Shown here piece by piece: positions 5,366-48,372 of a DNA stretch of 64,000 nt (position 1 is the first letter of the stretch; each line of letters begins with the position of its first letter). Position numbers and translations under genes: made by a program. Origin of the DNA: Actinopolymorpha cephalotaxi (GTDB taxonomy: Bacteria; Actinomycetota; Actinomycetes; Propionibacteriales; Actinopolymorphaceae). Below the pieces are notes generated by a model. It ran no database searches. It saw nothing but the letters and a program-made list of their open reading frames with translations, and was not told the DNA's origin. The stretch covers positions 4,114,850-4,178,849 of the forward strand of contig NZ_JACBZA010000001.1 of the NCBI RefSeq assembly GCF_013408535.1, read 5' to 3'.

Positions 5366-5411
5366 GTTGACAGCGGGCGTTGACAGCGGGCGTTGACAGC
5401 GGGCGTTGACA
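5366..5411 (+). repeat. 13-bp tandem repeat carrying four TTGACA hexamers
   Basis: GTTGACA recurs at 5366, 5379, 5392 and 5405, exactly every 13 bp, in the unit gttgacagcgggc. Each copy holds a perfect TTGACA -35 hexamer. The array ends about 27 bp before the start of the Gfo/Idh/MocA gene, in the right place to influence its transcription. Confidence 0.85.
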
Positions 5412-5437
5412 GGCCCATCGAACGGAGGAGGCACGTG

Positions 5438-6436: not shown

Positions 6437-6450
6437 CCCCAGGGCACCCG

Positions 6451-6478
6451 ATCAGGACCGCCCGATCAGGACCGCCCG
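6451..6478. repeat. 14-bp direct duplication at a stop codon
   Basis: The sequence gatcaggaccgccc occurs twice in tandem. It places a minus-strand TGA at 6468-6466 (the stop of the GH-like 10 gene) and again 14 bp further downstream at 6454-6452. This is one of several stop-codon-anchored repeats in the window. Confidence 0.7.
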
Positions 6479-12568: not shown

Positions 12569-12610
12569 GGTTGTCGGGGGTGGGCGGCGCCAGGGTTTGT
12601 CACGTACGCC

Positions 12611-12651
12611 GGTTCTGCTCGGTGCGGTCCTGCTCGGTGCGGGCCTGCTCA
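12611..12651. repeat. 15-bp repeat, 3 units, ending at a stop codon
   Basis: ctgctc recurs at 12615, 12630 and 12645 in a 15-bp unit (ctgctcggtgcggtc and variants). The last unit supplies the TCA that is the minus-strand TGA stop of the epimerase gene; in the other two the same position reads TCG. Confidence 0.65.
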
Positions 12652-23469: not shown

Positions 23470-23552
23470 GCCACCAGCTTCGCACGATGGTCAGACATCA
23501 ACGGGCATTGGTGTTTGGGCATCGGCGACCCGGTCGAGCCCGACCACCCCCA

Positions 23553-23576
23553 AACGCTCAAACGCTCAAACGCTCA
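23553..23576. repeat. 8-bp repeat, 3 perfect units, from a stop codon
   Basis: aacgctca occurs three times in tandem (23553-23560, 23561-23568, 23569-23576). On the minus strand this is TGAGCGTT three times, and the first TGA is the stop codon of the YceI gene. The TGAs fall in all three reading frames. Confidence 0.85.
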
Positions 23577-24146
23577 GACGCCCGCGAGCTCGGGCTGGAG
23601 TACCGCCTCGACGTCCACGGTGACCTCCACCACGTCGCTCACCACCACACCGCCCCGGTCCACCGAGTCGTTCCAGCTGACTCCGAAGTCGTGCCGGTTG
23701 ATGCTCGTACGCCCGACGAACCCGGCCCGGCGGCGCGGGCCGAGGTCACGTCCGTCCTCCCACCACGGTGTGTCCCACTGACCGAGGTAGGTGACGTGCA
23801 ACGTGACCGGTCTGGTGACGCCGCGGATCGTGAGGTCGCCGGTCACCTCGAACGCCGAGGCGCCGATCCGCTCCACCTTCCCTCCGACGAACGTCCAGGT
23901 CGGGTGGTTCTCGACGTCGAAGAAGTCCGCGCTGCGCAGGTGCGCGTCCCTCGCCGGCTCACCGGTGTAGACCTTGGTGGCGTCGATCATCGCCTCGATC
24001 CGGGTACGGTCGAGGTGGTCCGGGTCGACCACGACCGACCCGTGCACGTCCTTGAACTGCCCCCGCACGTAGGCGACCATCATGTGCCTCGCGGTGAACT
24101 CCGCGCCGGTGTGGCCCGGCTCGAACACCCAGTGGTTTGCCCCCAT
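23574..24146 (-). CDS. YceI family protein
   Basis: 190-aa YceI-like lipocalin-fold protein that in other bacteria binds long isoprenoid lipids. Diagnostic segments are FEPGHTGAEFTARHMMV, FKDVHGSVVVDP, HLRSADFFDVENHPTWTF, GDLTIRGVTRPVTL and RTSINRHDFGVSW. There is no signal peptide, so it is probably cytoplasmic. ATG at 24146 is preceded by GAGGGGGAG. The stop codon starts a perfect 8-bp tandem repeat. Confidence 0.92.
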   Translation of the reverse strand: MGANHWVFEPGHTGAEFTARHMMVAYVRGQFKDVHGSVVVDPDHLDRTRIEAMIDATKVYTGEPARDAHLRSADFFDVENHPTWTFVGGKVERIGASAFEVTGDLTIRGVTRPVTLHVTYLGQWDTPWWEDGRDLGPRRRAGFVGRTSINRHDFGVSWNDSVDRGGVVVSDVVEVTVDVEAVLQPELAGV

Positions 24147-24771: not shown

Positions 24772-25320
24772 ATGACGACGACACCGGCGTTCCCTGACCT
24801 TCCCCCCGGCCAACCTCAAGGCCAACCCCAGCACGGGTCCGACGACGACCTGCTTCCCTATCTGCGCCAGGCCCTGTCCCTGGCCACGGCGAACGCGGAC
24901 GCGGGTCAGCTGCCGTTCGCCGCCGTCGTGGTCCGCGACGGGAAGGTGCTCGGCACCGGCGTCAACACCGCCGTCCGCGACTCCGACCCGATCGCCCACG
25001 CCGAGGTCGAGGCGGTACGCGACGCCGGCCGGAAGCTCGGCGACGGTGACCTCACCGGGGCGGTCGTGGTGTCCAGCTGCGAGCCTTGCGCGATGTGCCA
25101 CACCGCGGCGCTGGTGGCCGGCGCGACCAGGATCGTGTACGCCGCACCGAAAGAGTACGTCCCGGACTTCGGGGGTACGCCGCGACCGGACCTCACCCGG
25201 CTGCAGGGGATCCTGCGGGAGGCCGCACCGGAGACCGTCGAGCACCAGCCCGTCGACGGTGCGCGGGAACCCTTCGACCGGTACCTGGCAGTGCTCGCGG
25301 CAAGGAGTGAGGGCCGGTGA
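24772..25320 (+). CDS. Cytidine/guanine-type nucleoside deaminase family protein
   Basis: 182-aa zinc deaminase of the CMP/dCMP-guanine deaminase superfamily. Zinc and catalytic motifs are HAEVEAV (about 72-78) and SCEPCAMCH (about 102-110). A Pro/Gln-rich N-terminus of about 25 residues precedes the domain. The substrate could be guanine, a nucleoside or a related heterocycle. It is transcribed divergently from merR and its TGA overlaps the next start as GTGA, so it forms a coupled pair with the F420-type oxidoreductase. Confidence 0.87.
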   Translation: MTTTPAFPDLPPGQPQGQPQHGSDDDLLPYLRQALSLATANADAGQLPFAAVVVRDGKVLGTGVNTAVRDSDPIAHAEVEAVRDAGRKLGDGDLTGAVVVSSCEPCAMCHTAALVAGATRIVYAAPKEYVPDFGGTPRPDLTRLQGILREAAPETVEHQPVDGAREPFDRYLAVLAARSEGR

Positions 25321-26252
25321 AACTCGGCGTCAACATCATCAACTTCGGGGACGGCACCAACCCGGACGCGCTGCTCGGCTGGGCGAGGTTCGCCGAGGGT
25401 GCGGGCTTCTCGCTGGGGATGATCTCCGACCACGCGGCGGTCACCCAGGACGTCGCCGACCTGTATCCCGAGCCGTTCTACGAGCCGTTCACCGCGATGG
25501 CCTGGCTGGCCGGGGCCACCGAGCAGCTCGAACTCGGCACCTCCGTGGCGGTCGCGCCCTACCGCAACCCGCTGTTGACAGCACGGATGACGACCGCCAT
25601 CGACCAGTTCAGCAACGGGCGGGTCATCCTCGGGGTCGGTGTCGGCTGGTCGGAGCCGGAGTTCGCCGCCCTGAACGCCCCGCCGTTCAAGCGCCGCGGT
25701 GACGTCACCGACGAGTACCTCGCCGCTGTCAAGGCGCTCTGGACATCCGAACGCGCGACGTACGAAGGCGAGTTCGTGTCGTTCCGCGACGTGTACAGCG
25801 GCCCGCCGCCGGTACGCCGTCCGCACCCGCCGATCTGGGTGGGCGGTGCCAGCCGGGCGGGCCTGCGGCGGGCGGTGACCTACGGCGACGCGTGGCACCC
25901 GATCAACCCGCGTCCCGGCTGGCTGCGTACGACCGGAATGCCCGGCCTGCGGGAGGAGGCCGACGCCGCCGGCCGCGACGTGCCGATGCTGTCGGTGCGG
26001 ATCCGGGCCAACCCGAGTGACACCCGGCGCGACGACGCCGACCGGCTGACCGGCGAGGGCACCATGGCGCAGATCCTGGCCGACGTGACCGACCTCGTCG
26101 ACCTCGGCGCGGAGTACGTCACGCTGGACACCGTTCTGGAAAGCCCTTCGCTGCGGCGTCCGCTCGAGGAGGACTGGCGGCTGCTGGAGAAGGTCGCGAA
26201 CGCGCTCTTCGACGCCGGAATCGCCACCCCCGCAGGAAAGCGAGCGACCTGA
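25317..26252 (+). CDS. Luciferase-like F420-dependent oxidoreductase
   Basis: 311-aa LLM-class flavin/F420-dependent oxidoreductase with a TIM barrel. Recognisable segments are the N-terminal strand KLGVNIINFGD, LELGTSVAVAPYRNPLLTARM (about 80), GRVILGVGVGW and PPIWVGGASRAGLRRAV. GTG at 25317 overlaps the deaminase stop by 4 bp. The stop codon region is partly duplicated: acctgaac recurs 14 bp later. Regulation by the divergent MerR is inferred. The pair may degrade or modify a heterocyclic compound. Confidence 0.88.
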   Translation: MKLGVNIINFGDGTNPDALLGWARFAEGAGFSLGMISDHAAVTQDVADLYPEPFYEPFTAMAWLAGATEQLELGTSVAVAPYRNPLLTARMTTAIDQFSNGRVILGVGVGWSEPEFAALNAPPFKRRGDVTDEYLAAVKALWTSERATYEGEFVSFRDVYSGPPPVRRPHPPIWVGGASRAGLRRAVTYGDAWHPINPRPGWLRTTGMPGLREEADAAGRDVPMLSVRIRANPSDTRRDDADRLTGEGTMAQILADVTDLVDLGAEYVTLDTVLESPSLRRPLEEDWRLLEKVANALFDAGIATPAGKRAT

Positions 26253-26288
26253 ACCACGGAACCTGAACGGGGCAGGCGAGCCGGCAGG

Positions 26289-30540: not shown

Positions 30541-30600
30541 CAGCTGGTCAGGCGCAGTGGGTCAAGCACAGCTGGTCAGGAACAGCTGGTCAGGCACGGT
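30541..30600. repeat. 14-bp repeat, 4 units, from a stop codon
   Basis: TCA occurs at 30548, 30562, 30576 and 30590, exactly every 14 bp, within cagctggtcagg-like units. On the minus strand the TGA at 30592-30590 is the aminotransferase stop, and it is repeated three more times downstream. Confidence 0.85.
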
Positions 30601-31852
30601 CGAGCAGCCGGCCGAGCGCGGCGCTCAGCCGGTCGAGCCGGTCCGCGACCCAGGGCAGCGCCACCGGGTCGGCCGCGGTGAGCGCCTTGTCCCGCTGCTC
30701 GCCCTCGCCGTACAGCATGCTCGTCGCGACCCGCAGGCTCAGCCGCTCGTCCGGGTCGCCGAACGCCGCACCGGGCAGGGTCGCCACGTCGAAGGAGTCC
30801 AGGAGCAGGGCCGCGAGCTCGGTGCCGGTGCCGACCGACCAGCGTTCGGCGAGCAGGCCGGCGTACGCGGAGAAGTCCGGGTAGAGGTAGAACGCCGCGG
30901 CCGGCGGGTGCACGGCCGCCCCCGCCGCGGCGAACCGGTCGGCGACCGCGAGGGCCACCCGGGCGTGCAGGGAGCGGCTGGCGGCGATGCGTTCGGTGAG
31001 CTGGTCGGGCTCCTCGAACGCCCACGCGGCCGCCTGCTGCACCGGGTTCGCCGGGCTGGACCACACCTCGCTGGCGATGGCGGCCACCTCGGCGCCGAGC
31101 CGGTCGCCGAGCGGCCCCTCCGGCATCCGGGCGACGCCGATCCGCCAGCCGCCGAGGGCGAGGTTCTTGCTCAGGCCGGTGGTCACGACGGTGCGTTCGG
31201 GCGCCAGCTCGGCCGGGCTGAGGAACTCCCGGATCGGGTCGTGGACGAGGTCGCGGTAGATCTCGTCGGACACGATCAGCAGGTCGTGCCGGCGGGCGAC
31301 GTCGGCGACGGCCCGGATCGTGCCGCTGCCGGCCAGCGTCCCGGTCGGGTTGTCGGGCAGGGTGAGCACGACCAGCCCGATCGGGCGGCCGGCGGCTCTC
31401 GCGGCGGTGGCGGCCGCGTCCAGCAGGTCGGGGTCGGGCACGCCGCCCTGCCCGTCGGGCGCCGGCACGTGGTGCACCTCGCGGCCGAGGAGCTGGGCCT
31501 GTGCGGCGTAGGTCACCCAGCTCGGCCGGGGCAGCGCGACCCCGCCGGCGCGCGCCCGGAGTACGGCGTACAGCAGGGGCTTGCTGCCCGGGCCCGCGAC
31601 CACCTGCGCGGCCGTCGTCGGCAGGCACCGCCGTCGCCAGTAGCCCGCCGCGGCCTCGCGCAGCGCGGGAAGTCCGGCGACGGGTCCGTAGCTCCCCGAC
31701 GATCCGGCCGCCGCGGCCGCGGTCAGCGCCGCCACCAGGTCCGGGTGCACCGGGAGTCCGGCCTCACCGAACCCGAGGGGCAGGACGGGCCGCCCGGCCG
31801 CCAGCCGTTCGGAGGTGAGCTGGTTGATGGCCAAGGTCGCCGAGACTGCCAT
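30590..31852 (-). CDS. PLP-dependent class I/II aminotransferase
   Basis: 420-aa fold-type I aminotransferase. Visible features are SYGPVAGLPALREAAAGY (about 53-70), the LTLPDNPTGT segment (about 162), IVSDEIYRDLVHD, and the PLP lysine in TTGLSKNLALGGWRIG (about 223-238). The substrate amino acid is not evident. ATG at 31852 lies 12 bp after the stop of the aldo/keto reductase, so the two form an operon. The stop codon begins a four-unit 14-bp tandem repeat. Confidence 0.9.
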   Translation of the reverse strand: MAVSATLAINQLTSERLAAGRPVLPLGFGEAGLPVHPDLVAALTAAAAAGSSGSYGPVAGLPALREAAAGYWRRRCLPTTAAQVVAGPGSKPLLYAVLRARAGGVALPRPSWVTYAAQAQLLGREVHHVPAPDGQGGVPDPDLLDAAATAARAAGRPIGLVVLTLPDNPTGTLAGSGTIRAVADVARRHDLLIVSDEIYRDLVHDPIREFLSPAELAPERTVVTTGLSKNLALGGWRIGVARMPEGPLGDRLGAEVAAIASEVWSSPANPVQQAAAWAFEEPDQLTERIAASRSLHARVALAVADRFAAAGAAVHPPAAAFYLYPDFSAYAGLLAERWSVGTGTELAALLLDSFDVATLPGAAFGDPDERLSLRVATSMLYGEGEQRDKALTAADPVALPWVADRLDRLSAALGRLLDRA

Positions 31853-32746: not shown

Positions 32747-32821
32747 CGCCGCCTCCGTTTCCCCCGCCGACCGTCCGTCCGTCCGGCCGACAGGTCGCAT
32801 CGGCCCGTTCGTGATCATGTG

Positions 32822-32980
32822 CCATTCTGGTCGCCGACGACAGGGAGGAACCCGGTGCGAATCCGGGGCGGTCCCGCCACTGTCACCAGGAAGCGACCTC
32901 TCCACGCAGAGGCCACTGCCGCGCGAGCGGTGGGAAGGCCGGAGCGGAAGCCACGATCTGGGAGCCAGGACACTCCGTTC
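32822..32980 (+). ncRNA. Cobalamin (B12) riboswitch
   Basis: Both hallmark boxes of the adenosylcobalamin riboswitch are present. Near 32843-32882 the core reads GGGAGGAACCCGGTGCGAAT followed by CCGGGG and GTCCCGCCACTGT. Near 32958-32974 the downstream box reads GGGAGCCAGGACACTC. Between them is a variable stem region with GGAAGC and cctctccacgcagagg. It lies 50 bp upstream of the cobT-cobU start and should switch the cob operon off when B12 is plentiful. Confidence 0.93.
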
Positions 32981-33006
32981 GTCGGTACGACCATCCAGGG
33001 CGCGGA

Positions 33007-33026: not shown

Positions 33027-34763
33027 GTGGCTGCCGTGAACTCTGCCGGCCCGTCGAACTCCGACGGCTCGATCGGCCCAGTCGGACCAGTCGGCCCAGT
33101 CGGCTCTTCCGGCTCGGTGCTGGACCGTACGCTGCGCGCCGTCCGTCCACCGGACGCCGGCGCGGTGGCCCGGGCCCGCGCCCGGCACGACGCGCTGGCG
33201 AAGCCGCGCGGCGCACTCGGTGTCGTGGAGGACCTCGGCGCACAACTAGCCGGGCTGGCCGGAACCTGCCCGCCGCCGGTACCCGAGCCCGCCGGCCTCG
33301 CCGTCTTCGCCGGTGACCACGGCGTCCACCGGCAGGGCGTCTCGCCGTGGCCGCAGGAGATCACCGCCGCGATGGTGTCGACGTTCCTGTCCGGCGGCGC
33401 GGTCGTCAACGCGCTCGCCCGGCAGGCCGGAGCGCGCGTGCGGGTCGTCGACGTCGGGGTGGCGGCCGACCTCCCGCCGGCGCCGGGCCTGCTGGACCGC
33501 AAGGTACGCGCGGGCACCGACGACCTCAGCGAGCGGCCGGCCATGAGCCGGACCGAGGCTGTCGCGGCGGTCGAGGTCGGCATCGACGTCGCCGCCGACC
33601 TGGTGGCGCAGGGGTGCCGCTGTCTGCTGACCGGCGACATGGGCATCGCGAACACCACTCCCGCGGCGGCCCTGGTCGCGGCGTTCACCGGGGGTACGCC
33701 GGAGCTGGTGACCGGCCGCGGTACCGGGATCGACGACGCCACCTGGGCGACCAAGGTCGCGGTCGTCGGCCGGGCCCTCGACCTGCACCGCCCCGACCCG
33801 GCCGACCCGCTGGGCGTCCTCGCCGCACTCGGTGGCCTCGAACACGCCGCGACCGTCGGCTTCCTGCTGGGCGCGGCCGCCGCCCGGGTGCCGGTGGTAC
33901 TGGACGGCATCGCCGCGGGGGCCGCCGCGCTGGTGGCCCGGGCGCTCGCGCCGGACGCGGTGGGCGCGTTCGTCGCCGGTCACGTGTCCGCCGAACCAGC
34001 CGCACGGCTGGCGCTGGCAGAGCTCGGGCTGCGGCCCGTCCTCGACCTGGACCTGCGGCTCGGCGAAGGGTCCGGCGCGGTGCTGGCGCTGCCCGTCGTC
34101 CGGGCCGCGGCGGTCGTCCTGAGCGAGGTCGCCACCCTGGACGAGGTGGCCGCGGGCGGAGCGGACGCTCGGAGCGCCCGGCGACCGCGGCGGATCCTGG
34201 TGCTGGGCGGAGCGCGCTCGGGCAAGTCCACGACCGCCGAACGGCTGGCCGGGGCGGGCGGGCCGGTCACCTACCTCGCCACCGGCCCGCGGCCCACCGC
34301 CGGCGACCCGGAGTGGGCCGAGCGCGTACGCACCCACCGCGAACGCCGGCCGCCGGACTGGACCACGGTCGAGACCTCCGACCTGGTGGCGCACCTGAAG
34401 GCCGACGACCCGGAGCGTACGGAACCGTTGCTGATCGACTGCCTGTCCACCTGGCTGACCGGCGTGATGGACGCGGCGGGCTGCTTCGGCACCGAGCACC
34501 ACTCCCCCGGCGGCCCGCCCGGCGACGAGGTGCGGGACCCGGCCGCCGTGCTGGCGGCGGAGGTGGACGCGCTGGTCGCGGCCTGGGGATCGACAACCCG
34601 TACGGTCGTCGCGGTCAGCAACGAGGTCGGCGGCGGGGTCGTGCCCGCCACCTCCTCCGGCCGGCTCTTCCGCGACGAGCTCGGTGTGCTGAACGCCCGG
34701 ATCGCCGCCGCGTCCGACGAGGTGTGGCTCCTCACCGCCGGCATCCCCCAGCGGCTGCGGTGA
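33027..34763 (+). CDS. cobT-cobU: CobT-CobU fusion, B12 lower-ligand assembly
   Basis: 578-aa bifunctional protein. Residues about 30-385 are nicotinate-nucleotide:dimethylbenzimidazole phosphoribosyltransferase (AKPRGALG, FAGDHGVHRQGVSPWPQE, GDMGIANTTPAAAL, LGEGSGAVLALPVVRAA). Residues about 390-578 are adenosylcobinamide kinase/guanylyltransferase (P-loop LVLGGARSGKSTTAERLA, then TYLATG, later VSNEVGGGVVPATSSGRLFRDELG). The two parts make alpha-ribazole phosphate and GDP-cobinamide, the two substrates of CobS, encoded next. GTG at 33027 has GGAGGGA upstream; the first about 25 residues include a GPVGPVGPVG slippage repeat. The stop overlaps cobS by 4 bp. Confidence 0.92.
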   Translation: MAAVNSAGPSNSDGSIGPVGPVGPVGSSGSVLDRTLRAVRPPDAGAVARARARHDALAKPRGALGVVEDLGAQLAGLAGTCPPPVPEPAGLAVFAGDHGVHRQGVSPWPQEITAAMVSTFLSGGAVVNALARQAGARVRVVDVGVAADLPPAPGLLDRKVRAGTDDLSERPAMSRTEAVAAVEVGIDVAADLVAQGCRCLLTGDMGIANTTPAAALVAAFTGGTPELVTGRGTGIDDATWATKVAVVGRALDLHRPDPADPLGVLAALGGLEHAATVGFLLGAAAARVPVVLDGIAAGAAALVARALAPDAVGAFVAGHVSAEPAARLALAELGLRPVLDLDLRLGEGSGAVLALPVVRAAAVVLSEVATLDEVAAGGADARSARRPRRILVLGGARSGKSTTAERLAGAGGPVTYLATGPRPTAGDPEWAERVRTHRERRPPDWTTVETSDLVAHLKADDPERTEPLLIDCLSTWLTGVMDAAGCFGTEHHSPGGPPGDEVRDPAAVLAAEVDALVAAWGSTTRTVVAVSNEVGGGVVPATSSGRLFRDELGVLNARIAAASDEVWLLTAGIPQRLR

Positions 34764-35647
34764 GGAGCGCGGACAGCGCCGCGCCGGGCGAGGGTGCGGG
34801 CGGCCATGCGTTCGCGGGGGCGGGCGGAGGTGCTCGTGAGGGCGCGGCGAGAGGACGCGGCCTGGTGCTGGCGGTGACGATGTTCACCGCCGTGCCCGTG
34901 CCGGGCAGGTGGACCGGAACGCCGGTGGACCGCGGCACCGCTGGGCGGGCGGTGTGCTGGCTGCCGTTCGTCGGCGCCCTCCTCGGCGCACTCGCCGGAC
35001 TCCCACTGCTCGCCGTCACCGCACTCGTACCCGACGGCACCGGCGCGCTGCTGGGCGCCGCACTCGCCGTCGCCACGCTGGCGCTGGTCACCCGCGGCCT
35101 GCACCTGGACGGACTGGCCGACACCGTGGACGGACTGGGGAGTTCCGCGCCGGCCGACCGCGCGCTGGCGATCATGCGGCAGCCGGACATCGGGCCGTTC
35201 GGGGTGGTGACCGTTGTACTCCTGCTGCTGGTGAAGGTGGCCGCCCTGGCGGCACTGGCGAACCAGGCGCCGGTGGCCGCCCTGCTCGCGCTCGCCGCGG
35301 CCGAGGGCGCGGGACGCCTGGGCGTGGTGTGGGCGACCGGAGCGGGCGTGGCCTCCGCGCGGCCCGGCGGGTTCGGCGCGCTGGTGGCCGGTACGACGAC
35401 CCGGCCCGCCCACCTCCTCCTGACCTCGGCCGTCGCCGCCGGCTGCCTGCTACCGCTCGGGTGGGACCAGCCCCGGCTCGCCGGAGCGCTCGTCGCCACC
35501 CTGGCCGTCGGGCTCGGCGCCGCCGTGGCCTGGCGCCGGCACGTCGTCCGCCGACTCGGCGGGGTGACCGGAGACGTGTTCGGCTCGGTCGTCGAGCTCG
35601 GCGCGGCCGCGGGCCTGCTTGCCGCCGTACTCCTGTCCTCGGCGTGA
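34760..35647 (+). CDS. cobS: Adenosylcobinamide-GDP ribazoletransferase (CobS)
   Basis: 295-aa integral membrane cobalamin synthase that joins GDP-cobinamide and alpha-ribazole. Key segments are FTAVPVPGRW, RGLHLDGLADTVDGLGSS (acidic active-site loop, about 115-132), IMRQPDIGPFGVV and the C-terminal GGVTGDVFGSVVEL. About seven membrane helices are apparent. GTG at 34760 overlaps the CobT-CobU stop as GTGA. A Gly/Ala-rich N-terminal extension of about 35 residues precedes the first helix. It belongs to the riboswitch-controlled transcript. Confidence 0.92.
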   Translation: MRSADSAAPGEGAGGHAFAGAGGGAREGAARGRGLVLAVTMFTAVPVPGRWTGTPVDRGTAGRAVCWLPFVGALLGALAGLPLLAVTALVPDGTGALLGAALAVATLALVTRGLHLDGLADTVDGLGSSAPADRALAIMRQPDIGPFGVVTVVLLLLVKVAALAALANQAPVAALLALAAAEGAGRLGVVWATGAGVASARPGGFGALVAGTTTRPAHLLLTSAVAAGCLLPLGWDQPRLAGALVATLAVGLGAAVAWRRHVVRRLGGVTGDVFGSVVELGAAAGLLAAVLLSSA

Positions 35648-35736: not shown

Positions 35737-36555
35737 ATGTCAGCCAGCACCTCCTTCGCACCGGTCCGGCTGCGGCCCCGGAGCGCGCTGGTGCTGGCGC
35801 TGGCCTCCGTGGTCGGCCTGGCCGGCTTCGGCTGGCCGTTCCTGGCGGTGACGCCCGGCGGGACCGGCGCGGCCCACGGCCAGGACGCGGCGTACCTCTT
35901 CGTGGCCCTGCTGCCGCTGCTGCTCGGCCTGGTCTGGGCCGAGCTCGGCGACGGAGGCATGGACGTCAAGGCGGTGGCGATGCTCGGCGTGCTCGCCGCC
36001 GCGGGCGCCGGGCTGCAGACGCTCAGCCCGGGCACCGGAGGGTTCGACCCGGCGTTCTTCCTGCTGGTCGTCGCCGGACGGGTGTTCGGACCGGGCTTCG
36101 GCTTCGCGCTCGGCGTGGTGGCCATGCTCGCCACCTCCCTGCTCACCGGCGGGGCCGGACCGTGGCTGCCGTTCCAGATGATCGGGCTGGCCTGGGTGGG
36201 GCTACTCGCCGGCTGCCTGCCGGCCGCCTCCGGGTGGGCCGAGCGCGGGCTGCTCGCGGCGTACGCCGGGCTGAGCGGCTTCGGCTACGGCGCGCTGCTC
36301 AACCTGTGGTTCTGGCCGGCCGCGGCGTACCTGCCCGACGGTGCGTCGTACGTGCCGGGTGCCTCGCTCGGCACCAACCTGCACCACTACGCCGTCTTCT
36401 ACGCCACCACCTCCCTCGGCTGGGACACCGCGCGGGCGCTGCTGGGCGGCGTCCTGGTCCTGGTCGCCGGGCGGCCGGTGCTGGCGACCCTGCGCCGGGC
36501 CGGCCGGCGGGCCGCCTTCACCGGAGGTCGGGACGGCGGGACCGACCCGGCCTGA
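35737..36555 (+). CDS. ECF transporter S component
   Basis: 272-aa membrane protein with about 6-7 helices, recognised as a substrate-binding S subunit of an energy-coupling factor vitamin importer (VAGRVFGPGFGFALGVVAMLATSLLTGG, WLPFQMIGLAWVGLLAG, ALLNLWFWPAAAYL). Its position after cobS under a B12 riboswitch suggests that it imports a cobalamin precursor or the lower-ligand base. No ATPase or T subunit follows, so it must share an energising module encoded elsewhere. ATG at 35737 has GGGAGCC upstream. Its stop codon begins a seven-unit 13-bp repeat. Confidence 0.8.
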   Translation: MSASTSFAPVRLRPRSALVLALASVVGLAGFGWPFLAVTPGGTGAAHGQDAAYLFVALLPLLLGLVWAELGDGGMDVKAVAMLGVLAAAGAGLQTLSPGTGGFDPAFFLLVVAGRVFGPGFGFALGVVAMLATSLLTGGAGPWLPFQMIGLAWVGLLAGCLPAASGWAERGLLAAYAGLSGFGYGALLNLWFWPAAAYLPDGASYVPGASLGTNLHHYAVFYATTSLGWDTARALLGGVLVLVAGRPVLATLRRAGRRAAFTGGRDGGTDPA

Positions 36556-36643
36556 CGGTGCGGGCTGACGGTGCGGGCTGACGGTGCGGGCTGACGGTGC
36601 GGGGTGACAGCGCGGGCTGACAGGGCGGCCTGACAGTGATCTG
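36553..36643 (+). repeat. 13-bp repeat, 7 units, from a stop codon
   Basis: TGAC recurs at 36553, 36566, 36579, 36592, 36605, 36618 and 36631, exactly every 13 bp, in the unit tgacggtgcgggc and variants. The first TGA is the stop codon of the ECF S-component gene. Because 13 is not a multiple of 3, the TGAs cover all frames. Confidence 0.9.
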
Positions 36644-36884
36644 TGCGGGCTCTCTCAGCGGCCGGGTTCATCCTCGGTGAGGCCGGGGTGGACGGCGGCG
36701 GACCGTACTGTGTCAACGCTCGGTATTCGTCTCGACGGGCGATCCGGGACCACCTAGATTGCCGGGGGCGACACCGACCGCACCGGGCGCGCCCGCCGCC
36801 GATCCCGCCCGGCACCGGCCAGGTATCCGGCCCGAGACCCGGTCACTCCCCGACCCGCACCCACCCGACCCCAGGAAGGCCCGC
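36644..36884 (+). other. Intergenic region before the ABC exporter operon
   Basis: With the 13-bp repeats this completes a 329-bp gap without a gene. It should hold the promoter of the exporter operon, but I see no convincing -35/-10 pair. AGGAAGG at 36873-36879 is the ribosome-binding site of the first exporter gene. No tRNA or other RNA was recognised. Confidence 0.5.
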
Positions 36885-38618
36885 GTGCTCATCCGTCTCC
36901 TGCGCGCCCACCTGCGCCCCTACACCAGGCCCATCGCCCTGGTCGTGGTGCTGCAGCTCGTGCAGACCCTCGCCACCTTGTACCTACCAAGCCTGAACGC
37001 CGACATCATCGACAACGGCGTGGTCAAGGGCGACACCGGCTACATCATGTCCACCGGGGGCATCATGCTCGCGGTGACCCTGGTGCAGATCCTGTGCGCC
37101 GCGGCCGCGGTCTACTTCGGTGCGCGTACGGCGATGGCCCTCGGCCGCGACGTCCGGGCCGCGATCTTCGACCGGGTGCAGCAGTTCTCCGTCCGCGAGG
37201 TCGGGCAGTTCGGGGCGCCGTCGCTGATCACCCGCACCACCAACGACGTCCAGCAGGTGCAGATGCTGGTCCTGATGACGCTCACCCTGATGGTGTCCGC
37301 ACCCATCATGTGTGTGGGCGGGGTGCTGATGGCCCTGAACCAGGACGTTCCCCTGTCGGCGCTGCTGCTGGTGGTCGTGCCGGTGCTGATCCTCGCGGTG
37401 AGCATGATCATCCGTCGGATGCACCCGCTGTTCCGTTCGATGCAAGAACGCATTGACACCGTGAACCGCGTGATGCGCGAGCAGATCACCGGCATCCGGG
37501 TGATCCGGGCGTTCGTCCGCGACCGCCACGAACAGGCCCGTTTCGCCGTCGCCAACAACTCGCTGATGGACGTCTCCCTCGGCGTCGGCCGGCTGATGGC
37601 GTTCATGTTCCCGATCGTGATGGTCGTGATGAACCTCTCCAGCGTGGCCGTCATGTGGTTCGGTGCGCACCGGATCGACAGCGGTTCGATGCAGATCGGC
37701 GCGCTGACCGCGTTCCTCAGCTACCTGATGCAGATCCTGATGTCGGTGATGATGGCGACGTTCATGTTCGTCATGGTCCCGCGGGCGTCGGTGTGTGCCG
37801 AGCGGATCAGCGAGGTCCTCGACACCGAGACCAGCGTGCGGCCGGCGGCCTCGCCGGTACGCCGACTCCACGGGCACGGTCAGCTCGACCTGCGGGGTGT
37901 GGACTTCCGCTACCCGGGCGCGGAGGCGCTCGTCCTCGCCGGTGTCGACGTGACCGCCCGGCCGGGCCAGACCACCGCCATCATCGGGAGTACGGGCGCG
38001 GGCAAGACCACCCTGCTCAACCTCGTACCCCGCCTGTTCGACGCCGACGGCGGCCAGGTGCTGGTCGACGGCGTCGACGTCCGCGAGCTCGACCCGGCGC
38101 TGCTGTCGCGCACCGTCGGCCTGGTGCCGCAGAAGCCGTACCTCTTCTCCGGCACCGTCGCGTCCAACCTCCGTTACGGAAACCCCGACGCGACCGACGA
38201 GGACCTGTGGAACGCCCTGGACATCGCGCAGGCGCGCGACTTCGTGGAGGCGATGGAGGGACAGCTCGAGGCGCCGATCGGTCAGGGCGGCAGCAACGTG
38301 TCCGGCGGGCAGCGGCAACGGCTCGCGATCGCCCGGCTGCTGGTGGCCCGCCCGGAGGTCTACCTCTTCGACGACTCGTTCTCCGCTCTCGACTACGCCA
38401 CCGACGCCGCCCTGCGGGCCGCCCTGCACCGGGAGATCGGTGACGCCACCATCGTCATCGTCGCCCAGCGGGTGTCCACCATCCGCGACGCCGACCGGAT
38501 CGTCGTCCTCGACGAGGGCCGGGTCGTCGGGATCGGGACCCACACCGAACTGATGGACGGCAACCAGACCTACCGGGAGATCGTGCTCTCCCAGCTCACC
38601 GAGCAGGAGGCCGCATGA
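36885..38618 (+). CDS. ABC exporter half, degenerate ATPase site
   Basis: 577-aa fused permease-ATPase (type IV/ABCB-like exporter). Six membrane helices span about 1-320, then the ATPase: Walker A GSTGAGKTT (about 367), signature NVSGGQRQRLA (about 468) and Walker B VYLFDDSFSALD (about 492). The residue after the Walker B aspartate is Asp instead of catalytic Glu, as in the TM287-like half of heterodimeric exporters. GTG at 36885 has AGGAAGG upstream. The stop overlaps the next gene's ATG (ATGA), as expected for obligate partners. The substrate, probably a drug or lipid, is unknown. Confidence 0.93.
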   Translation: MLIRLLRAHLRPYTRPIALVVVLQLVQTLATLYLPSLNADIIDNGVVKGDTGYIMSTGGIMLAVTLVQILCAAAAVYFGARTAMALGRDVRAAIFDRVQQFSVREVGQFGAPSLITRTTNDVQQVQMLVLMTLTLMVSAPIMCVGGVLMALNQDVPLSALLLVVVPVLILAVSMIIRRMHPLFRSMQERIDTVNRVMREQITGIRVIRAFVRDRHEQARFAVANNSLMDVSLGVGRLMAFMFPIVMVVMNLSSVAVMWFGAHRIDSGSMQIGALTAFLSYLMQILMSVMMATFMFVMVPRASVCAERISEVLDTETSVRPAASPVRRLHGHGQLDLRGVDFRYPGAEALVLAGVDVTARPGQTTAIIGSTGAGKTTLLNLVPRLFDADGGQVLVDGVDVRELDPALLSRTVGLVPQKPYLFSGTVASNLRYGNPDATDEDLWNALDIAQARDFVEAMEGQLEAPIGQGGSNVSGGQRQRLAIARLLVARPEVYLFDDSFSALDYATDAALRAALHREIGDATIVIVAQRVSTIRDADRIVVLDEGRVVGIGTHTELMDGNQTYREIVLSQLTEQEAA

Positions 38619-40588
38619 GCACGCAGGTGAAGCCGGCCAGCCCACCCAAACGCGGGATGGGGCCGGACCGTCGCCACGGCCCGATGATGGGCGGCGGGAT
38701 GTCCACCGAGAAGGCGATGAACTTCCGCGGCTCCAGCAAGCGGCTGATCGCCATGATGCGACCAGAGCGTCCGGTGGTCCTCGGCGTCCTCGTGCTCGGC
38801 GCGATCAGCGTCGGGCTGTCGGTGCTCGGGCCGAAGATCCTCGGCCACGCCACCAACCTGATCTTCGCCGGGGTGGTCGGACGCCAGCTTCCGGCCGGGA
38901 TCACCAAGGAACAGGCGATCGAGGGCCTGCGCGCACGCGGGCAGGGCGACGTCGCCGACCTGCTCCGCACGGTCGACGTCGTACCCGGACAGGGCATCGA
39001 CTTCAACGCGGTGGGCATGGTCCTGATGGCCGCGCTGGGGATCTTCGTGGTGGCGTCGCTGTTCGCCCTTGTCCAGGGCAGGTTGACAGCGGTCGTGGTG
39101 CAGAAGCTGGCGTTCCGGCTGCGTGAGCAGGCCGAGACCAAGCTCTCCCGGCTGCCGCTCGGCTACTTCGACCGGCAGCCGCGCGGTGAGGTCCTGTCGC
39201 GTACGACGAACGACATCGACAACATCGCCCAGACGCTGCAACAGGCGCTCAGCCAGATCGTCACCTCCGTCCTCACCATCATCGGCGTGCTGGCGATGAT
39301 GATCTGGATCTCACCGCTCCTCGCGGTCATCGCGCTGGTCACCGTGCCCGTGTCGGTGCTCGTCGTCGCGGTGATCGGCAAGCGCGCCCAGCCGCAGTTC
39401 ATCAAGCAGTGGGCGACCACGGGAACGCTGAACGCCCACATCGAGGAGATGTACACCGGGCACGCGCTGGTGAAGGTGTTCGGGCGGCAGCGGGAGGCCG
39501 CGCAGACCTTCGCCGAGGAGAACGAGGCGCTGTTCACCTCCAGCTTCAAGGCGCAGTTCATCTCCGGCACGATCCAGCCGGCGATGATGTTCATCGGCAA
39601 CCTGAACTACGTGCTGGTCGCGGTGATCGGCGGGCTGCGGGTCGCCTCCGGGACGCTGTCGCTGGGCGACGTGCAGGCGTTCATCCAGTACTCCCGGCAG
39701 TTCAGCCAGCCGATCACCCAGGTCGCCTCGATGGCCAACCTGCTGCAGTCCGGCGTCGCCTCGGCCGAGCGCGTCTTCGACCTGCTCGACGCCGAGGAGC
39801 AGCAGGCCGACCCGTCGCCTTCGCGGCGGCCTGCGCAGGTGACCGGCAAGGTCGCCTTCGAGCACGTGTCGTTCCGGTACGACCCGGACAAGCCGCTGAT
39901 CGAGGACCTCTCCCTGGTGGTCGAACCCGGCCACACGGTGGCCATCGTCGGCCCGACCGGCGCCGGCAAGACGACGCTCGTCAACCTGCTCATGCGGTTC
40001 TACGAGGTGACCGGCGGGCGGATCACCCTCGACGGGGTGGACGTCACCGAGATGTCGCGGGACGACCTGCGCGCACGGATCGGCATGGTCCTGCAGGACA
40101 CCTGGCTGTTCGGCGGGACGATCGCTGACAACATCGCCTACGGTGCCGGAGACGTGCCGCGGGAGCAGGTGGTGGCGGCCGCGCAGGCCACCCACGCCGA
40201 CCGGTTCATCCGGACCCTGCCGGACGGGTACGACACGGTGATGGACGAGGAGGGCGGGAACGTCAGCGCCGGCGAGAAGCAGCTGATCACCATCGCCCGC
40301 GCGTTCCTCACCGAGCCGTCGATCCTGGTGCTGGACGAGGCCACCTCGTCGGTGGACACCCGGACCGAGGTGCTCATCCAGCACGCGATGACGTCGCTGC
40401 GGGCCGGGCGTACCAGCTTCGTCATCGCCCACCGGTTGTCCACCATCCGCGACGCCGACGTGATCCTGGTGATGGAGAACGGCCGGATCGTCGAGCAGGG
40501 CAACCACGAGAAGCTGCTGGCCGCCGACGGTGCGTACGCCCGGCTGTACGCCGCGCAGTTCGCCCAGGCGGTGGTCGAGGTCGACTGA
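38615..40588 (+). CDS. ABC exporter half, canonical ATPase site
   Basis: 657-aa partner of the preceding exporter half. A Met/Gly/Pro-rich N-terminal extension of about 45 residues precedes six membrane helices (about 50-390). The ATPase has Walker A GPTGAGKTT (about 446), an altered signature NVSAGEKQL (Ala-Gly-Glu-Lys in place of SGGQ, about 551) and Walker B ILVLDEATSSVD with the catalytic Glu (about 571). The asymmetry, altered signature here and missing Glu in the partner, is that of TM288/BmrD-type heterodimers with one active site. The stop codon region is duplicated 16 bp downstream, followed by a strong terminator. Confidence 0.93.
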   Translation: MSTQVKPASPPKRGMGPDRRHGPMMGGGMSTEKAMNFRGSSKRLIAMMRPERPVVLGVLVLGAISVGLSVLGPKILGHATNLIFAGVVGRQLPAGITKEQAIEGLRARGQGDVADLLRTVDVVPGQGIDFNAVGMVLMAALGIFVVASLFALVQGRLTAVVVQKLAFRLREQAETKLSRLPLGYFDRQPRGEVLSRTTNDIDNIAQTLQQALSQIVTSVLTIIGVLAMMIWISPLLAVIALVTVPVSVLVVAVIGKRAQPQFIKQWATTGTLNAHIEEMYTGHALVKVFGRQREAAQTFAEENEALFTSSFKAQFISGTIQPAMMFIGNLNYVLVAVIGGLRVASGTLSLGDVQAFIQYSRQFSQPITQVASMANLLQSGVASAERVFDLLDAEEQQADPSPSRRPAQVTGKVAFEHVSFRYDPDKPLIEDLSLVVEPGHTVAIVGPTGAGKTTLVNLLMRFYEVTGGRITLDGVDVTEMSRDDLRARIGMVLQDTWLFGGTIADNIAYGAGDVPREQVVAAAQATHADRFIRTLPDGYDTVMDEEGGNVSAGEKQLITIARAFLTEPSILVLDEATSSVDTRTEVLIQHAMTSLRAGRTSFVIAHRLSTIRDADVILVMENGRIVEQGNHEKLLAADGAYARLYAAQFAQAVVEVD

Positions 40589-40611
40589 TCCGAACGTCGA
40601 CTGATCCAAAC
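40580..40611 (+). repeat. 16-bp duplication containing a stop codon
   Basis: gtcgactgatccgaac (40580-40595) and gtcgactgatccaaac (40596-40611) are adjacent. The TGA stop of the exporter gene (40586-40588) is repeated at 40602-40604. Confidence 0.75.
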
Positions 40612-40622
40612 AGTGTGAGCAG

Positions 40623-40653
40623 GGGCGGCCGGACCGGAATGGTCCGGCCGCCC
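40623..40653. terminator. Bidirectional terminator, 13-bp stem
   Basis: gggcggccggacc (40623-40635), loop ggaat, ggtccggccgccc (40641-40653), then ttgttgt on the plus strand. It separates the convergent exporter and ankyrin genes and should terminate both. Confidence 0.88.
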
Positions 40654-40671
40654 TTGTTGTACGAGGATCTG

Positions 40672-42201
40672 TCAGGCGAGGCCGCGCAGGTACGCCGCGG
40701 TCTCCTCCTGGCCGCCGTGCTCGGCCCAGCCGAGCGGCGTTCCGCCGAAGGAAGCGTCGCGGAGGTGGGGATCCGCGCCCTGCTCCACCAGGAACCGTAC
40801 GAGCGGGAGGTGTCCTGCATTGGCTGCCTCGTGCAGCGCGGTGCGCCGCAGGTGTGGTCCGAGCATCCCGCCGCGTGCACCGGCGTTCACGTCGAACCCC
40901 TGCTCCAGCAGGAGCCTCATCGCCTCGACCCTGCCCGAGCGGGCCACCAGAACACCGGCGTCCGGGAACTTCTCCCGCACGTGCGCGGGCAAGCCGGGGT
41001 TGACGGCGGTCAGGCGTTCCACCTCGGCCCGGTCACCGGCCGCGCACGCGCCCACGAACTCCTGCACCGCGCTCACCCGGCCGCGATCGGCGCCGGCGTC
41101 GAGGAGCATCCGGGCGATCTCGCGTTCGCCGGCCAGCGTGGCCAGCTGCAACGCGGTGAGGTCGCCGTAGTTCGGGTGGTAGCCAGGGCCGTCGGCGGCG
41201 ACACCGTGGTCCAGCAGCAACCTGACCCGGGCGGCGAACCCGTGGTCGGCGGCCACCCGAAGCTGCTCCTCCACCATCGCCGTGGTCGACGGGTAGGTGT
41301 GGCTCAGCCGCCGGCGCCACGGACTGTCGAACTCCTTGCCCAGCCCGAACTCGAACAGCACCTCCAGGTGGTCGTTCTCAGGCGTGAACTGCCTGTTGTA
41401 CAAGGCCTGGTTGTCGTTCGGGTCCGCACCGGCCGCCAGCAGCGCCCGGGCCAGGGCGACCGCCCGCGGGTGCGGCGGCTGTCCCTGCTCGCCGCCGCCG
41501 AACGCTCCGGTGAGCGCGGTGAACGCCGACGTCATCCCCTGCCACAGCCGGCCGGCGTTCGGGTCGGCGCCGGCGGCCAGCAGCACCTCCGCCGCCTCGA
41601 CCGGTGAGCCCGCGTCGAGCCGGGCGTACGTCAGGTACATGAGCGGCGGCCAGCCGTACGGGCCGCCGCCCTGGTCGACCTGGGAGCGATCCCGCTCCAG
41701 CGCCTCCCGCAGCCCGGCCGCGTCGCCGGCGGCCGCCATCGTGTGCGGGGAGAACCTCGCGACCTCCGGGTGGGCCCGCAGGAGCTCCCGTGCCCGGGCC
41801 GGCCGGTGCGGGGTGTCGCGGGTGTAGTTGAGGCAGGCGAGGTCGAGGAAGCGGTCGGCCAGAGCAGGCAGGTCCCGGCCGTCCGGGAAGTCGGCGTCGG
41901 CCGTGTCAGCCATGTCACCGATGTCACCCGTGTCGTCCACCGGCCGCGGCCAGTACGAGTACTCCGCCACCACGTCGAGATGGGTCCGCAGCCGTTGCCA
42001 GCTGGGGAATCCGTAGCTGCGGGCGACCACGAGCTGTGCGTCGCTGAGGGTGCATCCGCCGGAGACGTCACGGCGGGGATCGAACTCCTGGAACACCGCC
42101 AGCGCCTCGGCGTCACCGGCCCGCGCACTGCGCTGCAGCGACCTGGCCTGGTTCCTGAGATGCTCGAGACTGGGGTTGTCGGGGAGCGGACGAGCAGGCA
42201 C
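40672..42201 (-). CDS. Ankyrin repeat protein
   Basis: 509-aa protein with an N-terminal region of about 95 residues (SLEHLRNQARSLQRSARAGD, ARSYGFPSWQRLRTHL) also seen in other bacterial ankyrin proteins. Ankyrin-type helical repeats follow to the C-terminus; clear units are AAEVLLAAGADPN, ALARALLAAGADPND, ARMLLDAGAD, MRLLLEQGFDVN and LVRFLVEQGADPH. No signal peptide or membrane segment is seen, so it is a cytoplasmic protein-interaction scaffold of unknown partner. GTG at 42201 has AAGGAGG upstream. It is convergent with the exporter operon. Confidence 0.88.
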   Translation of the reverse strand: MPARPLPDNPSLEHLRNQARSLQRSARAGDAEALAVFQEFDPRRDVSGGCTLSDAQLVVARSYGFPSWQRLRTHLDVVAEYSYWPRPVDDTGDIGDMADTADADFPDGRDLPALADRFLDLACLNYTRDTPHRPARARELLRAHPEVARFSPHTMAAAGDAAGLREALERDRSQVDQGGGPYGWPPLMYLTYARLDAGSPVEAAEVLLAAGADPNAGRLWQGMTSAFTALTGAFGGGEQGQPPHPRAVALARALLAAGADPNDNQALYNRQFTPENDHLEVLFEFGLGKEFDSPWRRRLSHTYPSTTAMVEEQLRVAADHGFAARVRLLLDHGVAADGPGYHPNYGDLTALQLATLAGEREIARMLLDAGADRGRVSAVQEFVGACAAGDRAEVERLTAVNPGLPAHVREKFPDAGVLVARSGRVEAMRLLLEQGFDVNAGARGGMLGPHLRRTALHEAANAGHLPLVRFLVEQGADPHLRDASFGGTPLGWAEHGGQEETAAYLRGLA

Positions 42202-46663: not shown

Positions 46664-47374
46664 CTACTCGGCGCGGCCGGCCCAGGTGCCGCGGACATGA
46701 CCGAGATGCCGGCGCATCAACTTCCGTACGGCCTCGGCGTCGCCGGCCTCCAGCAGGTCGAGCAGCGCGAGGTGTTCGCGGGCCGAGGTCTCCAGCACAC
46801 CGCGTTCGGCGAGGCGGCCCAGCCCGAACAGGCGGGTGCGTTCGCGGAGTTCGGCCACCGTGTCCACGAGGGCGGCGTTCCCGGCCAGCCGCAGCAGGTC
46901 GAGGTGGAACCTCCGGTCCGCCTCGACGTAGCCGATCAGGTCACCGGCCCGGGCGGCGTCCACGATCGCCTGGGCGAGCGGCCGGAGTTCGGCGTACGCT
47001 TGCGCCGGGACCTCGCCGGCGAGCCTCGTGACGGTCGGCACCTCGATCAGCCCGCGGAGTTCGGTGATGTCGTCCAGTTCGGCGTCGGACACCTCGGTGA
47101 CCCGGAACCCCTTGTTTCGTACGACTTCCACCAGCCCGGTGCGGGCAAGGTCGAGCATCGCCTCCCGCACCGGCGTCGCGGACACCCCGAACCGCGCGGC
47201 CAGCGCGGGCGCGGAGTAGACCACGCCCGGGCGCATCTGGCCGGACACCAGCGCCGCCCGAAGGGCGTCCGACACCTCGTCCCGCAGACTGCGGAATCCT
47301 CGCAGGGACGGGAGATCCGGCGCGTTCCCGTTCGCGGCGTTCCCGGCGACGTCCCCGGCGTTCCCGGCGTTCAC
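46664..47374 (-). CDS. GntR/FCD transcriptional regulator of hydroxyproline genes
   Basis: 236-aa FadR-subfamily regulator. After an Asn/Ala/Gly-rich start made of slippage repeats, the winged helix spans about 25-90 (LRDEVSDALRAALVSGQMRPG, then SAPALAARFGVSATPVREAML). The all-helical FCD effector domain follows (about 100-225; ELRGLIEVPTV, DRRFHLDLLRLAGN, EHLALLDLLEAGD) with the Asp/His residues that bind metal and ligand. GTG at 47374 overlaps the epimerase stop (GTGA), so it is the last gene of the hydroxyproline operon. It likely represses the operon and responds to a pathway intermediate. Confidence 0.9.
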   Translation of the reverse strand: MNAGNAGDVAGNAANGNAPDLPSLRGFRSLRDEVSDALRAALVSGQMRPGVVYSAPALAARFGVSATPVREAMLDLARTGLVEVVRNKGFRVTEVSDAELDDITELRGLIEVPTVTRLAGEVPAQAYAELRPLAQAIVDAARAGDLIGYVEADRRFHLDLLRLAGNAALVDTVAELRERTRLFGLGRLAERGVLETSAREHLALLDLLEAGDAEAVRKLMRRHLGHVRGTWAGRAE

Positions 47375-48372
47375 AGTGAGAACCCGTGCGGGAACGGATC
47401 CTCCGGGTCGAGGAAGTACTGCGCGGTACCGGTGAGCCAGGCCCGCCCGGTCACCGTCGGCACCACCGCGGGTAGGTCGCCCACAGTGGTCTCGGCCAGC
47501 AGCCGGCCGACGAACGTCGTACCGATGAACGACTCGTTGACGAAGTCGCGTTCGAGTTCGAGCAGGCCGCGGGCGTGCAACTGCGCCATCCGGGCACACG
47601 TCCCGGTGCCGCAGGGCGAACGGTCGAACCAGCCCGGGTGAATTGCCATCGCGTGCCGGGAACGGCGGGCGTCCGAGCCGGGTGCGGCGAGGTAGACGTG
47701 GTGGCACCCGGCGATGTCGGGGTTCTCCGGGTGGCGAGGCGGCGCGGCCTCGTTGATCGCCGCCATGATCGCCAGCCCGGCGTCAAGGAGCGCTTGCTTG
47801 TTCGAGCGGTCGAAGCCGAGCCCGACGCGGTCGGTCTCCACGATGGCGTAGAAGTTTCCGCCGTACGCCAGGTCGTAGGGCACCTCGCCCAGTCCCGGCA
47901 CCTTGACCGACAGGTCCAGCCCGGCGGAGTACGCCGGGACGTTCCGCAGGGTGACACCGCGGGCGACACCGTCGGACACCGCGACCTCGGCCACCACCAG
48001 CCCCGCCGGAGTGTCAAGGCGTACTTGCGTGACCGGCTCGACCACCGGGACCATGCCGGTCTCCACCAGGACGGTGGCCACCCCGATCGTCCCGTGCCCG
48101 CACATCGGCAGGCAGCCGGACACCTCGATGAAGAGCACGCCGAAGTCGGCGTCCGGCCGGGTGGGTGGCTGCAGGATCGCCCCGCTCATCGCGCTGTGGC
48201 CGCGCGGCTCGTACATCAGCAACGTACGCAGGTGGTCCAGGTGCTCGACGAAGTGCAGCCGGCGTGCTGCCATCGTGGCCCCGGGGATCACGCCCACTCC
48301 CCCGGTGATCACCCGCGTCGGCATCCCCTCGGTGTGGGAGTCGACGGCGTGGAAGACGTGCCGGGTCCTCAT
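47371..48372 (-). CDS. 4-hydroxyproline 2-epimerase (proline racemase family)
   Basis: 333-aa proline racemase-family enzyme converting trans-4-hydroxy-L-proline to cis-4-hydroxy-D-proline. Both catalytic cysteines are present: MCGHGTIG (Cys about 91) and SPCGTGTCAR (Cys about 253). This favours an epimerase over the trans-3-hydroxyproline dehydratase type, in which the first Cys is usually Ser and the second Thr. ATG at 48372 overlaps the upstream stop (ATGA). Operon context with a D-amino-acid dehydrogenase and a DHDPS-type deaminase supports hydroxyproline as substrate. Confidence 0.9.
   Translation of the reverse strand: MRTRHVFHAVDSHTEGMPTRVITGGVGVIPGATMAARRLHFVEHLDHLRTLLMYEPRGHSAMSGAILQPPTRPDADFGVLFIEVSGCLPMCGHGTIGVATVLVETGMVPVVEPVTQVRLDTPAGLVVAEVAVSDGVARGVTLRNVPAYSAGLDLSVKVPGLGEVPYDLAYGGNFYAIVETDRVGLGFDRSNKQALLDAGLAIMAAINEAAPPRHPENPDIAGCHHVYLAAPGSDARRSRHAMAIHPGWFDRSPCGTGTCARMAQLHARGLLELERDFVNESFIGTTFVGRLLAETTVGDLPAVVPTVTGRAWLTGTAQYFLDPEDPFPHGFSL

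What the first reader, a model, noticed from the sequence alone, without database searches (positions are those of the whole stretch)
36553..36643. Stop-codon-anchored tandem repeats: a recurring 3'-end structure
At several unrelated genes a short tandem repeat starts at the stop codon, so the TGA itself is repeated: ECF S component (13 bp x 7, TGA every 13 bp from 36553), aminotransferase (14 bp x 4, 30590), YceI (8 bp x 3, 23574), second ABC exporter half (16 bp x 2, 40586), GH-like 10 (14 bp x 2, 6466), LLM oxidoreductase (partial 14 bp x 2, 26250). The epimerase (15 bp x 3, 12649) is similar. The units differ in sequence and length but share the phase. This may be slippage tolerated only after the stop, or a functional element giving backup stops in all frames, acting in mRNA 3'-end formation or ribosome release. 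I know of no description of such a set.
Basis: partly seen in the sequence, partly recalled or inferred. Interest (0 to 1): 0.82.

Follow-up and report, generated by a model that had tools for sequence, protein, structure and literature searches.

The report
Neutral tandem repeats around stop codons
Short tandem repeats do sit on several stop codons in this soil-bacterium genome, but no more often than random placement after genes would give, and they come and go between related species, so they look like harmless copying slips rather than a new functional element.

Summary
The repeats are real: six of the seven listed arrays are found by Tandem Repeats Finder at the stated stops; the LLM one is not. 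Stop anchoring is not supported. In 100 stretches of the same genome, window excluded (2.0 Mb, 1,771 called genes), 18 of 76 arrays in 3' regions contain the stop, against 14.7 +/- 2.8 if arrays are placed at random in the space where they leave the protein unchanged (p = 0.16). A mild excess exists just after the stop in head-to-tail regions (16 of 53 against 8.9). Relatives (genus Actinopolymorpha) show turnover: of 131 gene ends compared with G004, two straddling arrays are only here, four only there, one in both. Unit lengths show no frame preference. Nearly all straddled stops are TGA (48 of 49), which short direct repeats near TGA largely explain. Best explanation: slippage minisatellites, tolerated when the first copy holds the stop. 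Stop-overlapping repeats are already in print for Yersinia pestis (PMC3689786), and selection for backup stops in bacteria was tested and not found (PMC6764699, abstract). Ordinary.

The parts
36548..36638 (+).
30541..30597 (-). 14 bp x 4 imperfect array over the stop of an aminotransferase (30590-31852)
   Evidence: G002 has a different 13-bp array at the same gene end, G004 and G001 none
23551..23581 (-). 8 bp array over the stop of a YceI protein (23574-24146)
   Evidence: no array in G004, G002, G001
40580..40611 (+). 16 bp x 2 array over the stop of the second ABC exporter half (38615-40588)
   Evidence: absent in G004, G002, G001 (read by eye); a hairpin lies downstream of it
40618..40658 (+). 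terminator-like hairpin after the ABC exporter gene, downstream of the array; the relatives without the array also have it (read by eye)
   Evidence: 75-nt fold z = -5.6
6447..6478 (-). 14 bp x 2 array over the stop of a GH-like 10 protein, in a 29-base gap between convergent genes
   Evidence: no relative with an aligned stop in the fetched stretches
12610..12650 (-). 15 bp x 2.7 array that begins at the second base of the stop of an epimerase-family gene (12649-13770)
   Evidence: no array in G004 and G001
26237..26275 (+). claimed partial 14-bp repeat at the LLM oxidoreductase stop (25317-26252); not a repeat by TRF (coordinates approximate)
   Evidence: not; G001 has a 9-bp array at this gene end

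Best explanation
These are short minisatellites made by tandem duplication (replication slippage or recombination between nearby short direct repeats) in the weakly constrained DNA after genes. A duplication that overlaps a stop codon leaves the protein unchanged as long as the first copy contains the whole stop, so such duplications survive, and the TGA is copied with the unit. Further slippage raises the number of copies, and point changes and deletions erode the array. No specific attraction to the stop is needed. Shown here: number on stops as random placement predicts, the limit on the coding side, absence of most of them in relatives, different units at one same gene end. Inferred: the slippage mechanism itself and selective neutrality.
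For: Random placement within permitted 3' space predicts the number of stop-containing arrays: 18 of 76 against 14.7 +/- 2.8, p = 0.16; 7 of 72 against 6.2 in 1.3 Mb of other actinobacteria (75 loci) and 3 of 17 against 2.1 in 400 kb from five congeners, G001-G005 (convergent regions are counted from both sides there). Arrays are densest where constraint should be least: convergent 0.78 per kb, head-to-tail 0.44, divergent 0.33; convergent against divergent p = 0.005, head-to-tail against divergent p = 0.28. In coding DNA 165 of 166 arrays have unit lengths divisible by three, between genes 47 of 119. Three arrays containing a stop start further upstream than the permitted limit, against 23 within it. 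Of 131 gene ends compared with G004, straddling arrays are own-only at 2, G004-only at 4, shared at 1. YceI, ABC exporter and epimerase arrays are not seen in the relatives; the aminotransferase end has unrelated arrays in two species. At the ECF S end, G002 and G001 without arrays show two CTGAC copies 10 and 22 bases apart, a plausible seed.
Against: In head-to-tail regions arrays starting at most 10 bases after the stop's first base are in excess: 16 of 53 against 8.9, p = 0.004; 8 of 20 against 4.1, p = 0.014, with the last 100 bases before the next start left out. The 40 stretches fetched last give 8 of 26 against 5.2, p = 0.09, and convergent regions 18 of 23 against 16.1, p = 0.18, so I read this as relaxed constraint just after the stop, but a mild local mutation bias would look the same. 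The first sample, which included the window, gave a borderline excess of stop-containing arrays (14 of 60 against 9.2, p = 0.05). Straddled stops are TGA in 31 of 31 cases at the loosest threshold, 77% expected, p = 0.0003; direct-repeat availability raises the expectation to 91-95%, which explains most of it but was reasoned after the fact. PMC3689786 (section 12) reports low diversity of stop-overlapping VNTRs and suggests they may be constrained. Copy number within one species could not be tested, and an excess of up to roughly half is not excluded by 18 against 14.7.
Confidence: 0.86

Rival explanations
1. Backup stops: the repeated TGA catches ribosomes that read through or slip, in all frames.
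For: Straddled stops in the own genome are all TGA, generally held to be the leaky one (the PMC6764699 abstract calls it the leakiest), and units not divisible by three put stops in other frames.
Against: Unit lengths divisible by three: 7 of 23 straddling arrays, 47 of 119 intergenic arrays in general, so no frame preference. Only 1-2% of genes have one (23 to 31 of 1,771 by threshold). Turnover is rapid. PMC6764699 (abstract and outline read) finds no evidence for selection of additional stops in eubacteria, rather a paucity.
Confidence: 0.03
2. An mRNA 3'-end element: the array folds into a terminator or an RNase-stopping structure.
For: The 91-nt ECF S array alone folds slightly better than shuffles (z = -1.7, 12 of 200 as good).
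Against: With its downstream flank z = -0.4. No terminator-like site by consensus scan in 36500-40750, though that scan needs a T tail and misses the hairpin at 40618-40658 too. At the ABC exporter the strong hairpin is separate from the array and present in relatives that lack the array. Units at different genes look unrelated (read by eye). Only these two arrays were folded.
Confidence: 0.05
3. A mutational hotspot: a TGA stop with a second nearby TGA seeds tandem duplications, so gene ends are born repetitive more often than other noncoding DNA.
For: In genes without arrays, a 5-mer holding the stop recurs 6-24 bases downstream for 74 of 767 TGA stops, 6 of 198 TAG stops and 1 of 31 TAA stops; straddled stops are TGA in 48 of 49 cases; mild excess just after the stop in head-to-tail regions.
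Against: Stop-containing arrays are not in significant excess; some of the counted 5-mers may be worn remains of old arrays. This is a refinement of the best explanation more than a rival.
Confidence: 0.2
4. A mobile repeat that targets stop codons, like mycobacterial MIRUs.
For: Insertion at a stop without harm to the gene is how MIRUs are described (recalled).
Against: Units differ in length and sequence from gene to gene (read by eye; no clustering run); in several cases a local single-copy state is seen in relatives.
Confidence: 0.01

Closest known systems
VNTRs overlapping stop codons in Yersinia pestis (PMC3689786; sections 11 and 12 and passages read)
   Same: Tandem units of 8-19 bp in 9 of the 10 listed, with the stop codon inside the repeat, at unrelated genes, variable copy number; 10 of 88 loci overlap a 3' end, 6 a 5' end (one of these a CRISPR); the authors note that copy number at 3' ends might affect the protein less.
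   Different: Known from strains of one species, where they showed low diversity; here the comparison is between species. Base composition is much lower in GC there (recalled).
TAACTGA direct repeats of Beggiatoaceae (PMC4679880; abstract start and passages read)
   Same: Short tandem repeats containing stop codons, in 13 cases overlapping the stop of an upstream gene.
   Different: One fixed 7-bp unit genome-wide, mostly pointing toward start codons, proposed as a post-transcriptional regulator site; here each locus has its own unit.
Fail-safe additional stop codons (PMC6764699; abstract and outline read)
   Same: Extra stops after the first one.
   Different: Concerns in-frame stop codons downstream as objects of selection, and was tested and not supported in eubacteria.
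Mycobacterial interspersed repetitive units (mostly recalled; mentioned in passages of PMC2734929)
   Same: Repeats between genes, some overlapping stop and start codons (recalled), with variable copy number.
   Different: One family of far longer units, about 100 bp (passage).

Membership tests
Slippage minisatellite / VNTR overlapping a stop codon | Tandem head-to-tail units above chance, with the stop in the first unit | tested here: met
Slippage minisatellite / VNTR overlapping a stop codon | Copy number differs between lineages | tested here: met
   between species:
Slippage minisatellite / VNTR overlapping a stop codon | Copy number differs between strains of one species | not testable with these tools
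   one genome per species held in the genome collections searched
Slippage minisatellite / VNTR overlapping a stop codon | Unit length free of the reading frame | tested here: met
   47 of 119 intergenic units divisible by three against 165 of 166 coding
   18 of 76 against 14.7 +/- 2.8, p = 0.16; a borderline p of 0.05 in the earlier sample with the window
   1 of 7 straddling arrays shared between own genome and G004
Backup stop codons | Frame preference of repeated stops | tested here: not met
   7 of 23 unit lengths divisible by three
Intrinsic terminator | Stable fold of the array above shuffles | tested here: inconclusive
   ECF S array: z = -1.7 alone, -0.4 with flank
MIRU-like mobile repeat | One unit family at many sites | tested here: not met
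   units look unrelated between loci, by reading; no clustering run

The most novel reading that the evidence does not exclude
Stop codon choice sets the indel mutability of gene ends: TGA stops, because TGA is common in GC-rich 3' sequence, pair with a second nearby TGA and seed tandem duplications, so TGA-ended genes carry repeat arrays on their stops and TAG- or TAA-ended genes almost never do (48 of 49 straddled stops in the three samples, at its loosest threshold, are TGA). This would make 3' ends of TGA genes a recurrent source of new minisatellites.
Probability: 0.2. Interest if true: 0.35.

Novelty: new member of a known kind. Interest (0 to 1): 0.17.

Why it matters
It shows that a striking pattern seen by eye in one window loses its force under the right null, in which the protein-neutral space for a duplication extends into the last codons by nearly a unit length. 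The same null can be used to judge other claims of gene-end repeats. The TGA bias is a small testable lead on how stop codon choice and indel mutation interact.

Tried and rejected
Rejected: backup stops (frame test), terminator function, mobile repeat family (units look unrelated). A first test on 60 stretches plus the window gave a borderline excess of stop-containing arrays (p = 0.05; p = 0.07 for the same count); it did not hold in the larger sample without the window, of which those 60 stretches are a part. The TGA bias looked like evidence for function until direct-repeat availability was counted. The Rfam scan of the window at gathering thresholds found one match, a cobalamin riboswitch, and nothing at the arrays. 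Literature searches run; two searches returned no paper, the latter for Actinopolymorpha with tandem repeats.

Rows dropped: the placement test uses arrays lying wholly inside an intergenic region plus the permitted overlap, 18 with a stop; one search counts 23 at the same threshold. The five left out are four arrays that run into a neighbouring called gene and one at a stretch edge. In one search, 131 of 160 queried genes (from 204 kb of the own genome) gave a gene end in G004; the rest had no hit, under 80% identity, or an alignment ending more than 45 bases before the stop. One of the two own-only arrays there, GH-like 10, is weak evidence because the G004 stop lies 339 bases further on; the other is YceI. 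That call's threshold misses the imperfect aminotransferase array and the ABC exporter array of the own genome, which were compared by eye. For the ECF S end of G001, settle on different TGA codons; neither reading has an array. Two of 77 loci (9 kb or shorter) were left out of the other-actinobacteria sample. Gene calls come from a hexamer-based caller written here, so starts are rough; stops are exact for each called frame.

Full report
What was checked. The window is part of a 6.86-Mb, single-contig genome, 72% GC in the window. The closest named relatives found with the ABC exporter protein are Actinopolymorpha species; G004 has the contig length of A. rutila. Six of the seven listed arrays are confirmed by Tandem Repeats Finder; the LLM one is not. 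Pfam supports the names aminotransferase, YceI, ABC exporter, GH-like 10, luciferase-like (LLM) oxidoreductase and epimerase; the ECF S protein has no Pfam match at E 0.001.

Is the stop special? I wrote a gene caller and a detector of approximate tandem repeats (units 6-24 bp in these tests) and applied them to the window and to 20-kb stretches spread over the genome. Repeats between genes are real: dinucleotide-shuffled regions give a mean of 0.0 arrays over five rounds against 102 observed at the same threshold. A duplication of p bases leaves the protein unchanged if the first copy contains the whole stop, so the neutral space begins p-3 bases before the stop. Placing each array at random in that space of its own region, the expected number of stop-containing arrays in 100 stretches without the window is 14.7 +/- 2.8 and the observed number is 18 of 76 (p = 0.16). 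At a looser threshold it is 20 of 97 against 18.8 (p = 0.41) and at a stricter one 14 of 45 against 10.7 (p = 0.10). In convergent regions, which have no promoter to avoid, it is 12 of 23 against 10.0 (p = 0.22). Other actinobacteria, 1.3 Mb in 75 loci, give 7 of 72 against 6.2, and stretches of G001-G005 around the orthologous region give 3 of 17 against 2.1. The second, equal frequency at starts, is not met: seven arrays contain a called start against 26 that contain a stop, with a few in both.

Results against this reading. The first 60 stretches with the window gave 14 of 60 against 9.2 (p = 0.05) and an excess of arrays starting at most 10 bases after the stop's first base, 27 of 60 against 17.6 (p = 0.0015). 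In the 100 stretches without the window that wider excess persists in head-to-tail regions, 16 of 53 against 8.9 (p = 0.004), also with the last 100 bases before the next start left out, 8 of 20 against 4.1 (p = 0.014). It is not significant in convergent regions, 18 of 23 against 16.1 (p = 0.18), and weak in the 40 last-fetched stretches alone, 8 of 26 against 5.2 (p = 0.09). So the first bases after genes are mildly favoured in head-to-tail regions, but not the stop codon itself.

Constraint. Arrays are densest in convergent regions (0.78 per kb), then head-to-tail (0.44) and divergent ones (0.33); only the convergent-divergent contrast is significant (p = 0.005; head-to-tail against divergent p = 0.28). 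Coding arrays have unit lengths divisible by three in 165 of 166 cases, intergenic ones in 47 of 119. Of 26 arrays that contain a stop, 23 start within the neutral limit and three further upstream. This is the footprint of purifying selection on proteins, with tolerance after the stop.

Turnover. At the ECF S end, the own genome has 13 bp x 7, G004 a related but different 13-bp array, and G001 and G002 no array. YceI, ABC exporter and epimerase arrays are not seen in G004, G002 or G001 (for the epimerase the G002 end aligns poorly); the aminotransferase end carries a different 13-bp array in G002. Of 131 gene ends compared with G004, straddling arrays are own-only at 2 (YceI, and GH-like 10, where the G004 stop lies 339 bases further on), G004-only at 4 and shared at 1. 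Gene 47371-48372 has a 9-bp array on its stop in G004 and a weak, different 9-bp one just after it here. An end that holds a worn array may be prone to slip again (inference).

The stop codon involved. Straddled stops are TGA in 31 of 31 cases in the own genome at the loosest threshold (77% expected among genes with noncoding space after them, p = 0.0003), 7 of 7 in G001-G005, 10 of 11 in other actinobacteria; arrays near but not on the stop show the usual mix, 51 of 66. In genes without arrays, a 5-mer that includes the stop recurs 6-24 bases downstream for 74 of 767 TGA genes, 6 of 198 TAG genes and 1 of 31 TAA genes. If arrays are born in proportion, 91-95% of straddled stops should be TGA, close to what is seen. 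This was reasoned after seeing the bias and stays a lead.

Function. No frame preference (7 of 23 units divisible by three), no unusual fold for the ECF S array with its flank (z = -0.4; -1.7 for the array alone), and at the ABC exporter a strong separate hairpin, seen also in relatives without the array. The PMC6764699 abstract reports no evidence of selection for additional stops in eubacteria.

What is known. PMC3689786 (sections 11, 12 and passages read) lists 10 VNTRs of Y. pestis that overlap stop codons and remarks that their copy number might affect the protein less, although their diversity was low. PMC4679880 (passages read) describes TAACTGA repeats that overlap stop codons of upstream genes in 13 cases. 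The present arrays are therefore new members of a known kind.

Verdict. Real repeats, ordinary explanation: minisatellites formed by slippage in weakly constrained 3' DNA, visible on stops because duplications that overlap the stop are protein-neutral.

Noticed in passing
window 32812-32994: Cobalamin riboswitch (RF00174, 78.2 bits) ahead of CobT/CobU-like and CobS genes (33117-35647); the ECF S-like gene 35737-36555 and the ABC exporter pair follow, so the ECF S protein may handle cobalamin or a precursor (inference).
   Followed up: partly
window 36643-36720: Noncoding block just after the ECF S array is conserved by eye in G004, G001 and G002, whereas the array before it is not; function not examined.
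   Followed up: no
L165, 3' end of the gene orthologous to window 4320-5243: G002 carries a perfect 15-bp array on this stop, G004 a worn 15-bp one with a similar unit, the own genome none: an apparent loss or independent gain.
   Followed up: partly
window 5366-5412: 13 bp x 3.6 perfect array upstream of the called start at 5435, each full unit holding a TTGACA hexamer; not tested for promoter effect.
   Followed up: no
L017 18253-18367: 19-bp array of about six copies, read on the minus strand, that joins the stop of one called gene to the start of the next; most units hold a TGA and an ATG.
   Followed up: no
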